From NCBI GenBank assembly GCA_016870325.1, contig VGBV01000002.1:1-57939 (forward strand): a DNA stretch of 57,939 bases. Direction: 5' to 3'. Of the stretch, positions 16,310-46,669 are shown piece by piece. Position numbers and translations under genes: made by a program. Position 1 is the first letter of the stretch. Each line of letters starts with the position of its first letter. The DNA comes from Actinomycetota bacterium (lineage in GTDB: Bacteria; Actinomycetota; Thermoleophilia; Solirubrobacterales; 70-9). The notes beneath the pieces are model-generated. The model did not search any database, was not told where the DNA came from, and was given only the letters and a program-made list of their open reading frames with translations.

Positions 16310-18631
<2,322 letters not shown>

Positions 18632-18640
18632 TGCCGTCCG

Positions 18641-20359
18641 CTACCCCTCGCTTCCCTGCTTCTCGGCGGCCTCTTCGGTGATCTCCTCTGCCTCGGCGAC
18701 CACCTCTTCCTCCTGCTCTTCGGTTTGCTCGTCCTCCTCGGCCTCGGCGGCGGGCTCCTCCTCCGTCTCTTCCTCGGCCGCCTCGGGCTCGCCCTCCTGC
18801 TCGGACTCGGCCTCGAGCTCCTCCTCGGCCTCGGCGACGCCCTCGATCGCGGCCTCGGCCTCCGCGGCCTCGGCCTCCGCGGCGGCGGCCTCGGCGGCCT
18901 CCGCCTCCTCCGCGGCCCTGCGCTCCGCCTCGGCCTCGTCGAACTCGGCCTCCGCGCGCTTCACGATCGTCGCCACGGCCGAGCTCTCGGCGTCGGGATC
19001 GGCGAGCACGGTGACGTCCTCGTCGCTGAGCGGGGTCAGCACCGCCGCCTGGTTGGTCGAGAAGCGCGCCAGCGCCTGATGCTGGGGCAGGCCGCAATAG
19101 CGGGAGCCCTCGAGCCCGGCGTTGGGGCAACGGCGGCCGGTGGTGAGCACGGCGGCGCAGCGCCCGTCGGCGACCTCCTCGCCCTCGTACTCCATCTCCT
19201 CCTCCTGCTGGGAGAACTCGGTCTCCGAGGTGATGTCCACCTTCCAGCCGGTCAGGCGCGCCGCCAAGCGCGCGTTCTGGCCGTCGCGGCCGATCGCCAG
19301 CGAGAGCTGGTCGTCGGGCACGATCACCGTCGCCTCCTTGGTCTCGTCATCGACCAGGACCTCGCGGACCCGGGCGGGCGAAAGCGCCTTGGCGACGAAA
19401 CGGGCCGGCTCGTCGTTGTAGGGGATGATGTCGATCTTCTCGCCGCGCAGCTCGCTGACGACCATGCGCACGCGCGAGCCGCGAGGGCCGACGCAGGCGC
19501 CGACCGGATCGACGCCGTCGGCGTGGGAGATGACCGCGATCTTCGAGCGCCAGCCGGGCTCGCGGGCCACGCCGGTGATCTCCACCAGCTTGTCCGCGAT
19601 CTCGGGGACCTCGAGCTCGAACAGCTTCTTGATCAGCTCCGGATTGCGGCGCGAGACCACGATGCTCGGCCCCTTGTTCTCGGAGGAGACGTCGGTGATC
19701 ACGGCCTTGACCCGCATGCCGTGGTCGTAGCGCTCGTTGTAGACCTGCTCGGATCGAGGCAGCAGCGCCTCCACCCGCTCGCGAAGCTGCACCAGGGTGT
19801 AGCGGTTGTCGGACTGCTGGATGATCCCGGTCACCAGCTCTCCGACGCGGTCCTTGTACTCCTCGTACATCATCCCGCGCTCGGCCTCGCGGATCCGCTG
19901 CAGGATCACCTGCTTGGCGGTCTGGGCGGCGATGCGCCCGAAGTCGTCGGGTGTCACGTCCTTGGTCTTGAGGTCGTCCATGTAGGGCGCCAGGCGCTCC
20001 TGCTCGACCTCGGGCTCCTCGGCCTCGCGGCGCTCGCCCGTCTCGGGGTCGACGCTGGGGCCCGTCTGCTGGATCTCGGGCACCGGCTCGCCCGCGGCCT
20101 CGGCTGCCTCGGCGGCCTGCAGCTGCTCCTCGAACTGCTCGTCCAGCAGCCTCGTCTCGAGGTCCTCGGGGACCATCAGCTCGAAGACCCGGAAGTCTGC
20201 GGTGTCGTGGTCGAGCTCGACCTTCGCGTACTTGGCCGCGCCGGGAGTCTTCTTGTAGGCCGAGAGCAGCGCGTCGGCGAGCGCGTCCATCAGGGTGTCG
20301 GCGTCGATCCCCTTCTCCTGCTCGAGCGCCTTGACTGCGTCCACGATCTCCTGGGTCAC
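18641..20359 (-). CDS. nusA: Transcription factor NusA with zinc-knuckle-like and acidic tail
   Basis: 572 residues against about 350 in typical actinobacterial NusA. The N-terminal RNAP-binding domain, S1 (about 155-225) and two KH domains ([18 protein letters not shown] and [20 protein letters not shown]) are normal to about residue 388. Then comes C-x8-C-x10-C-x3-[21 protein letters not shown] (about 405-430). This resembles the small Cys/His knuckle in which GxRC and YCxxH are conserved. A helical segment and about 120 mostly Glu/Ala residues end the protein. GTG start 20359 overlaps the rimP stop by four bases. Confidence 0.96.
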
Positions 20360-20850
20360 GAGGTCACCTCGGTGTTGGCGTTGTCGGGGGCGGGCTCGGC
20401 GTCGCCGGCGAGCGACTCGCCGGCGTCCACCAGGTTGGCGCGACGCACCTCCGCGAGCGGGATCGCGATCGGGTCGCCGTCGACCTCGACCGTGAGCCCA
20501 TCGGCACCGGCGGCCTCGAGCGGACCGGTGAAGCTGCGGCGGCCGCCGATCTCGCGCTCGGTCCGGACGCGGACGCGGCTGCCCAGGAAGCGCTCGAAGT
20601 GCTCGGGCTTGGTCAGCGGACGCTCGGGGCCGGGCGATGAGACCTCCAGCGCCCAGTCCTCATTCAGGTCCTCGAGCCGGCGTGTGACTCGCTCGCACAG
20701 CTCCAGGTCGACGCCCTCGGGCCGGTCGATGACCAGACGCAGCCGCTCGGCCGCGACCTGCTCGAGAGAGATCAGCTCGACCTCGGGCATCGCCTCGGCG
20801 AGCCTGCCCTCGACCTGATCCTGGATCCGCTCTAGCTCTTCGGTGCTCAT
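20356..20850 (-). CDS. rimP: Ribosome maturation factor RimP
   Basis: 164 residues: MSTEELERIQDQVEGRLAEA, a two-domain RimP fold with the family segments LRLVIDRPEGVDLELCERVTR and LEVSSPGPERPLTKPEHFERF. It is needed for 30S maturation. I use the ATG at 20850. The frame is open for another 200 bases, but that extension crosses the promoter and leader terminator. First gene of rimP-nusA-infB. Confidence 0.94.
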   Translation of the reverse strand: MSTEELERIQDQVEGRLAEAMPEVELISLEQVAAERLRLVIDRPEGVDLELCERVTRRLEDLNEDWALEVSSPGPERPLTKPEHFERFLGSRVRVRTEREIGGRRSFTGPLEAAGADGLTVEVDGDPIAIPLAEVRRANLVDAGESLAGDAEPAPDNANTEVTS

Positions 20851-20912
20851 CTGGGGATTGACTGCAGCTCTCCGTCGCTCATCTGACTCCGTCGCGCACC
20901 GGGTCCGGGCCC

Positions 20913-20937
20913 AAAAAAAGGCGGGCGCTCGCCCACC
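20913..20937 (-). terminator. Leader terminator/attenuator upstream of rimP-nusA-infB
   Basis: On the minus strand GGTGGGC (20937-20931), loop GAGC and GCCCGCC (20926-20920) form a 7-bp hairpin with one G-T wobble, followed at once by seven T (20919-20913). This is a canonical intrinsic terminator. It lies about 35 bases after the predicted transcription start and 63 bases before the rimP ATG, where a terminator makes sense only as an attenuator. Confidence 0.85.
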
Positions 20938-20978
20938 TTCCGTACCACGAATCAGGTGCGAAAAAAGTTCCGAAGGCG

Positions 20979-21007
20979 AGTATAGCCCCGGCCCACGCTC
21001 GCGCCAA
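20979..21007 (-). promoter_or_regulatory. Promoter of rimP-nusA-infB (TTGGCG-17-TATACT)
   Basis: On the minus strand -35 TTGGCG (21007-21002) and -10 TATACT (20984-20979) are separated by exactly 17 bases, a strong housekeeping-sigma match. The expected start is near 20972. The 40-bp palindrome lies 26 bases upstream of the -35. Confidence 0.85.
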
Positions 21008-21033: not shown

Positions 21034-21073
21034 CTGAACGTCTGACCACACCATGGTGTGGTCAGACGTTCAG
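21034..21073. repeat. Perfect 40-bp palindrome between dtd and the rimP promoter
   Basis: Positions 21034-21053 (CTGAACGTCTGACCACACCA) and 21054-21073 are exact reverse complements with no loop. The next base pair outwards does not match. It starts nine bases after the dtd stop on the minus strand and has no T tract. It may terminate dtd transcription as a long GC-moderate hairpin. Alternatively it is an operator: each arm holds TGGTCAGAC, similar to GntR-family half sites. Confidence 0.97.
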
Positions 21074-42708: not shown

Positions 42709-42782
42709 GCGCCCGTAGCTCAGCTGGATAGAGCGCCGCCCTCCGGAGGCGGAGGCCGCAGGTTCGAATCCTGCCGGGCGCG
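42709..42782 (+). tRNA. tRNA-Arg (anticodon CCG)
   Basis: A complete cloverleaf of 74 bases. The acceptor GCGCCCG pairs with CGGGCGC (42775-42781) before discriminator G. The D arm is GCTCAGCTGGATAGAGC. The anticodon stem CCGCC/GGCGG carries loop CTCCGGA, giving anticodon CCG for CGG codons. The T arm has GGTTCGAATCC. CCA is not encoded. Confidence 0.97.
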
Positions 42783-46510: not shown

Positions 46511-46530
46511 TTCCGGGGGGAATCTCTTCC

Positions 46531-46650
46531 CACATCTTCCAGGCCTCTCGAATTGCTTGCCTGATGGATTTGGCACCTTCCTCGAATCGCGACGATCCGA
46601 GGGGGTTGCCGGGGTTTCAACGGGCCATTCCCTCCACCCCTCTTGATGTG
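46531..46650 (-). ncRNA. SAM-I (S-box) riboswitch aptamer
   Basis: Minus-strand order: P1 5' arm CACATC (46650-46645), AAGAGGGGTGGAGGGAATGG, CCCGTTGAAACC, CCGGCAACC, a variable P3 arm, AGGTGCCAAATCC, a P4 hairpin and P1 3' arm GATGTG (46536-46531). These are the invariant S-box elements (GAUGAAA-like kink-turn/core, CGGCAACC, GGUGCCAA-UCC) in correct order and spacing. SAM binding stabilises P1 and should favour the downstream terminator, turning thrC-cysO off when SAM is plentiful. Confidence 0.95.
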
Positions 46651-46669
46651 GTGCAGCTATGTGCGGGTG

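What the first reader, a model, noticed from the sequence alone, without database searches (positions are those of the whole stretch)
20913..21007. Promoter and early attenuator before rimP-nusA-infB
A near-consensus promoter is followed within about 35 bases by an intrinsic terminator with seven T, still 63 bases before rimP. Most transcripts should end there unless read-through is promoted. NusA stimulates intrinsic termination, so autoregulation of nusA by this terminator is the simple explanation, as proposed for leader terminators of nusA operons in other bacteria.
Basis: partly seen in the sequence, partly recalled or inferred. Interest (0 to 1): 0.58.

Follow-up and report, generated by a model that had tools for sequence, protein, structure and literature searches.

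The report
Attenuator leader of rimP-nusA-infB operon
A short, very conserved stretch of RNA in front of the genes for NusA and IF2 can fold into a stop signal for transcription, probably letting NusA limit its own production; the basic device is known, but here the start of the RNA also appears able to undo the stop signal.

Summary
On the minus strand a promoter (TTGGCG-17-TATACT) is followed 38 nt later by a strong intrinsic terminator (GAAGGTGGGC-GAGC-GCCCGCCTTTTTTT), 63 nt before rimP-nusA-infB. It is the terminator that Naville and Gautheret (2010) named the rimP-leader (GGGc...gCCC plus U-run). It is present in 28 of 28 readable relatives, and in the wider phylum it sits before rimP/nusA.

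Two things go beyond the finding. (1) In eleven genomes of three families without a detectable RimP N-domain the leader is still present; in the ten fetched, nusA follows it directly, so the device follows nusA, not rimP. (2) In the window's order (Solirubrobacterales) the first transcribed bases are complementary to the base of the terminator's 5' arm and change together with it: discovery set, hold-out set and a relatedness-controlled test agree; outside the order there is no such signal. This predicts an antiterminator that the general rimP-leader was said to lack. In the window itself the nascent arm is predicted to be caught by a somewhat different upstream hairpin.

NusA feedback remains the best reading, but no transcript or protein data were available. 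Verdict: new variant of a known kind.

The parts
21002..21007 (-). -35 hexamer TTGGCG
   Evidence: the sister-genus leader L002 also has TTGGCG 17 nt before TATACT (read)
20979..20984 (-). -10 hexamer TATACT
   Evidence: TATACT in 27 and TATAAT in 1 of 28 leaders
20913..20972 (-). leader RNA, about 60 nt if terminated; start inferred as 7 nt after the -10 box
   Evidence: inference
20961..20968 (-). U-rich 5' element ACUUUUUU, the counterpart of the AGCUUUC/AGCUUUUC element of relatives; can pair with GGAAGGU of the terminator arm (7 pairs, 3 of them G-U)
   Evidence: weak in the window itself
20934..20958 (-). predicted alternative (antiterminator) hairpin CACCU-ga-UUCGU-ggu-ACGGA-AGGUG, which holds the terminator's 5' arm before the 3' arm is made
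   Evidence: prefix folding: in the MFE of the 39- to 48-nt transcripts, replaced from 51 nt on
20917..20940 (-). terminator stem-loop GAAGGUGGGC-GAGC-GCCCGCCUUU
   Evidence: in A1 the six inner pairs are kept in 28 of 28 sequences
20913..20919 (-). T7 run of the terminator
20356..20850 (-). rimP (RimP_N and RimP C-terminal SH3 domains)
18641..20359 (-). nusA (NusA_N, S1, KH_5 domains)
16310..18631 (-). infB (IF2)

Best explanation
It is a transcription attenuator that controls the rimP-nusA-infB operon, with nusA as the gene that matters. RNA polymerase starts about 7 nt after TATACT. As the leader emerges, its 5' part first pairs with the lower 5' arm of the terminator (antiterminator state); once the GCCCGCC arm is made, the much stronger terminator hairpin can displace it over the U-run. 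NusA, which slows polymerase and stimulates intrinsic termination, would favour the terminator, so much NusA means less read-through and little NusA means more. Shown by sequence: promoter match, terminator, conservation, position before nusA even where RimP is not detectable, covariation of the 5' element with the arm in Solirubrobacterales. Inferred: start site, amount of read-through, order of folding in the cell, NusA as effector.
For: 28 of 28 relatives carry it. Covariance-model hits: 53 of 299 class genomes and 35 of 296 phylum genomes, one each in all but one genome; nusA is just downstream in 55 of the 57 loci fetched from these hits, rimP alone in 1, neither in 1 that ends at a contig edge. 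RimP_N is absent in 9 of 9 genomes of families f16 and f34 and in G311 and G313, all with the leader; RimP's C-terminal domain is absent in the 10 of these 11 that were tested (G311 not tested). Element-arm helix: own pairing 13.75 against 12.02 (sd 0.21) for swapped arms, 0 of 20000 (n=89); one leader per distinct arm, 4 of 20000 (n=36); in A3, 15 doubly changed cells against 3.9 in shuffles, 0 of 500; hold-out n=64: 14.11 against 12.75 (sd 0.23), 0 of 20000, distinct arms n=29, 6 of 20000; path-disjoint pairs on a NusA tree: 15.3 for, 2.0 against, 16.7 neutral (means of 400 draws), median one-sided p 0.0012. Review passage: B. [quoted passage not shown]
Against: No RNA-seq, TSS or binding data. 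The terminator is strong (-22.4 kcal/mol), which leaves little room for a stimulator unless something opens it. A first, cruder pairing test on 28 leaders was negative (permutation p 0.22; mean below shuffles). Single-site tests on the tree have no power. Outside the order the complementarity is absent (9.24 against 8.95, sd 0.30; 900 of 5000). Several leaders inside the order lack the element by eye (L155, L161, L188, L311, L328, L332, L337, L345). In the window the element itself is weak and the predicted alternative hairpin is another one. RNAalifold on A3 predicts the terminator only.
Confidence: 0.62

Rival explanations
1. A fixed brake: promoter plus strong terminator simply set a low constant level of operon transcription, without regulation.
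For: Strong hairpin; no ligand-binding domain or known Rfam element here.
Against: The GGGC/GCCC core is kept in 28 of 28 leaders and even in AT-rich genomes, more than any strong hairpin needs; the covarying alternative helix.
Confidence: 0.15
2. An attenuator with another effector: RimP, a ribosomal protein, translation of a nearby short ORF, or start-site nucleotide levels set the switch.
For: The 5' element lies at the very start of the RNA; the operon serves ribosome maturation and translation initiation.
Against: RimP is unlikely because the leader stays where RimP domains are not detectable. No conserved ORF was seen in the leaders (read, not tested).
Confidence: 0.15
3. The 5' element:arm helix is a pause hairpin or a stability hairpin of a short stable RNA, not an antiterminator.
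For: It is predicted to form while polymerase is still just downstream.
Against: Its 3' side is exactly the lower 5' arm of the terminator, so the two cannot coexist in full.
Confidence: 0.08

Closest known systems
rimP-leader (Naville and Gautheret 2010, PMC2965389; section on it read in full)
   Same: Same place, same GGGc...gCCC stem signature, U-run, 4-130 nt from the gene start; NusA proposed there as effector.
   Different: There the general form showed no visible antiterminator; here, in Solirubrobacterales, a covarying one is found. The antiterminator they saw in several Gammaproteobacteria belongs to a second, upstream terminator with the inverse motif, which I did not see in the leaders read.
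B. subtilis nusA operon leader, autoregulated by NusA-stimulated termination (passage of review PMC12288461; primary paper not read)
   Same: Leader terminator before the nusA operon, promoter upstream.
   Different: NusA effect measured there, not here; sequences were not compared here.
E. coli rimP-nusA-infB control (nusA represses its operon; cited in PMC2965389)
   Same: Feedback by NusA on the same operon.
   Different: Mechanism and leader layout not compared here.

Membership tests
rimP-leader attenuator | Lies in the 5' UTR of the rimP-nusA-infB operon | tested here: met
rimP-leader attenuator | Terminator stem with GGGc...gCCC | tested here: met
   GGGC-GAGC-GCCC; core pairs kept in 28 of 28
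rimP-leader attenuator | U-run directly after the stem | tested here: met
   T7, 20919-20913
rimP-leader attenuator | 4-130 nt between terminator and gene start | tested here: met
   63 nt
rimP-leader attenuator | No visible antiterminator (description of the general form, not a requirement) | tested here: not met
   covarying helix in the order; hence filed as a variant
rimP-leader attenuator | Match to an Rfam model of the element (that such a family exists is recalled) | tested here: inconclusive
   no such family among the matches up to E=10; the model may describe another clade's form
NusA-dependent autoregulatory terminator (B. subtilis type) | NusA raises termination at the site and represses the operon | not testable with these tools
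   needs in vitro transcription or NusA depletion
T-box, riboswitch or other known cis-regulatory RNA | Match to an Rfam cis-regulatory family at the gathering score | tested here: not met
   none at this site

The most novel reading that the evidence does not exclude
In Solirubrobacterales the nusA leader is a real two-state RNA switch: the first about 10 nt of the transcript form an antiterminator with the conserved terminator arm, and NusA itself decides which state wins. Across the phylum the device belongs to nusA and is kept when rimP is lost.
Probability: 0.4. Interest if true: 0.6.

Novelty: new variant of a known kind. Interest (0 to 1): 0.45.

Why it matters
The rimP-leader was described as the most ubiquitous transcription attenuator of bacteria (PMC2965389), without a visible antiterminator. 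A clade where the 5' end of the RNA covaries with the terminator arm gives concrete mutants to make, including in cultivated bacteria (Solirubrobacter, Conexibacter). The lineages without RimP say which gene the leader serves, and so support NusA, not RimP, as the thing controlled.

Tried and rejected
Generic antiterminator test on 28 leaders with a 12-nt arm including the GGGC core: negative, because C-rich stretches pair with GGGC anywhere; the test was then narrowed to the 8 nt ending in the variable lower arm and the first 26 nt after the -10 region. This narrowing was chosen after looking at the sequences, so the hold-out and the tree-controlled test carry more weight. The hold-out comes from the same order and was found with a model that contains the 5' element's sequence; its swap test compares own with foreign arms, so mere presence of the element does not produce the result.

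Rows dropped: L020 and L022 (contig ends). 101 leaders to 94 distinct, 5 of 94 without a recognisable -10 in range. A3 holds 42 of 43 listed leaders (L180, of another family, left out by me). One search, of 123 loci 13 without hairpin by the rule, 43 repeated or already in discovery, 3 without -10, 64 tested., 38 of the 44 rows: left out L069, L100, L215, L216 (members of the order) and L092, L093 (hairpin read on the wrong strand); with all 44 rows one search gave 27 of 5000. The scan of 30 genomes: 18 by strict rule, 24 of 30 when weaker stems are accepted by eye; no candidate in L105, L118, L124, L127, L128, L129.

Single-site independent-pairs test: no opposite case, but too few pairs to reach significance. 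Chance alternative (any GTGGGC..GCCCRC in the genome): 30 matches to the loose pattern in the own genome (14 forward, 16 reverse; control 33 and 35), so the core alone is not rare; of the five matches whose flanks I printed, only this one has a T-run. Boxes for the Nus complex and T-box likeness were thought of but not tested. Papers: PMC2965389 passages and section 7; PMC12288461 one passage; others only as search listings. I found no paper on this leader in Solirubrobacterales or on an antiterminator of its general form in those searches.

Full report
Observation. The genes lie on the minus strand: dtd, then the promoter and terminator, then rimP (20850-20356), nusA (20359-18641), infB (18631-16310). 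The promoter TTGGCG-17-TATACT is the only promoter-like site in 10 kb. The terminator GAAGGTGGGC-GAGC-GCCCGCCTTTTTTT ends 63 nt before rimP.

Conservation. NusA found the operon in 55 of 61 genomes; 30 loci were fetched, 28 hold the upstream part, and all 28 have TATACT (27) or TATAAT (1), then 27-46 nt up to the matched terminator segment, then G[TC]GGGC...CCC[AG]C with a T-run. The six inner stem pairs are standard pairs in 28 of 28; two pairs change on both sides (GC/AU 16:11 with one GU; UA/UG/CG). A covariance model of these 28 leaders hits 53 of 299 genomes of the class and 35 of 296 of the phylum at E<=0.01, one per genome except one genome with two; 55 of 57 fetched loci have nusA just downstream, 1 only rimP, 1 ends at a contig edge. 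A second, independent scan of 30 genomes finds the hairpin upstream of nusA in 18 by strict rule, none in three kinds of control, and in 24 by a looser reading. Of 80 named relatives (mostly Solirubrobacterales), 73 hit, controls 0 of 80. So the window is from this order (inferred from the nearest named records; its own record is not named).

What it is. The stem signature GGGc...gCCC, the U-run, the operon and the distance agree with the rimP-leader of Naville and Gautheret 2010, called there the most ubiquitous transcription attenuator, with NusA as proposed effector. A 2025 review states that in B. subtilis NusA is autoregulated by NusA-stimulated termination in its leader.

Which gene it serves. 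In genomes of two families (f16, f34) the leader is directly before nusA and RimP_N is absent in 9 of 9; two more genomes (G311 of family f14, G313 of f16) show the same. RimP's C-terminal domain is absent in all 10 of these 11 that were tested; the eleventh, G311, was not tested. For one of the eleven (G503) the leader hit was not fetched, so adjacency to nusA was read in 10. Several of these genomes are AT-rich, yet GTGGG(C)...CCCAC is kept. Completeness of 83-98% means that a single absence could be a gap; eleven in three families hardly can. The leader therefore follows nusA. This supports NusA as controlled gene and likely controller, and speaks against RimP as effector.

The antiterminator. 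In Solirubrobacteraceae the leader has a conserved layout: -10, ACAGCUUUCG, a hairpin, then (C)CGAAAGUGGGC...GCCCGCUUUUUUU. The CUUUC element can pair with GAAAG, the lower 5' arm of the terminator. The pairing holds in 94.9% of 294 cells, with 15 doubly changed cells against 3.9 in shuffles (0 of 500); slid versions reach at most 4. Examples seen: AGCUUCUU with AAGAAGU, AGCUUUUC with GGGAAGC, GACUUUCAG with CUGAAGGU. Over 89 leaders own arms pair better than swapped ones (0 of 20000; 4 of 20000 with one leader per distinct arm). A hold-out of 64 new leaders from 123 fetched loci repeats it (0 of 20000; 6 of 20000 for distinct arms). With relatedness controlled by path-disjoint pairs on a NusA tree: 15.3 pairs for, 2.0 against, 16.7 neutral, median p 0.0012. 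Single positions alone are not significant, RNAalifold reports only the terminator, and my first broad test was negative. Outside the order there is no signal. In MFE folds of twelve nascent leaders cut before the 3' arm the element:arm helix was present in most, but not in the window or L018.

In the window. Here the element is ACUUUUUU and pairs only weakly with GGAAGGU; folding of growing transcripts instead gives a hairpin CACCU..AGGUG stacked on UUCGU..ACGGA (20958-20934) from about 39 to 48 nt, replaced by the terminator from 51 nt on. It also sequesters the terminator arm. That this particular hairpin is functional is a prediction; its conservation was not tested.

Mechanism and confidence. 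Attenuator of the operon: near certain by anatomy, untested by RNA. NusA feedback: likely (published for relatives of the device, plus the families without RimP). Antiterminator state in Solirubrobacterales: well supported by covariation, about 0.75 in my judgement; in the window, about 0.5. All overlap in the stated 0.62 for the whole statement.

Noticed in passing
window 20847-20882, minus strand: A short ORF of 11 codons with GGAG 5 nt upstream ends in the rimP start (ATGA overlap); the stretch resembles the following rimP start, like a diverged tandem duplication of about 32 bp. The sister genus (L002) starts rimP at the first copy. rimP has no Shine-Dalgarno of its own there, so translation may be coupled.
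   Followed up: partly
window 21034-21073: A perfect 40-bp palindrome between dtd and the rimP promoter, without a T-run; its 28-bp core occurs once in the genome (up to 3 mismatches) and was not seen in the sister genus. Possibly the end of the dtd transcript.
   Followed up: partly
window 18641-20359, minus strand (NusA): NusA carries a long Glu/Ala-rich C-terminal tail after a Cys/His-rich stretch ([16 protein letters not shown]...YCGLPQHQ) that no Pfam family covers; it looks like a metal-binding motif.
   Followed up: no
window 46529-46652, minus strand: SAM riboswitch (RF00162, 87 bits).
   Followed up: no
window 42709-42782, plus strand: tRNA gene (RF00005).
   Followed up: no
L104, L111, L116, L213-L221: Another group of the class shows a conserved AAACTGCGA after the -10 box and TCGGAGTGGG in the arm: complementary except for a central G-G, perhaps a related alternative helix.
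   Followed up: no
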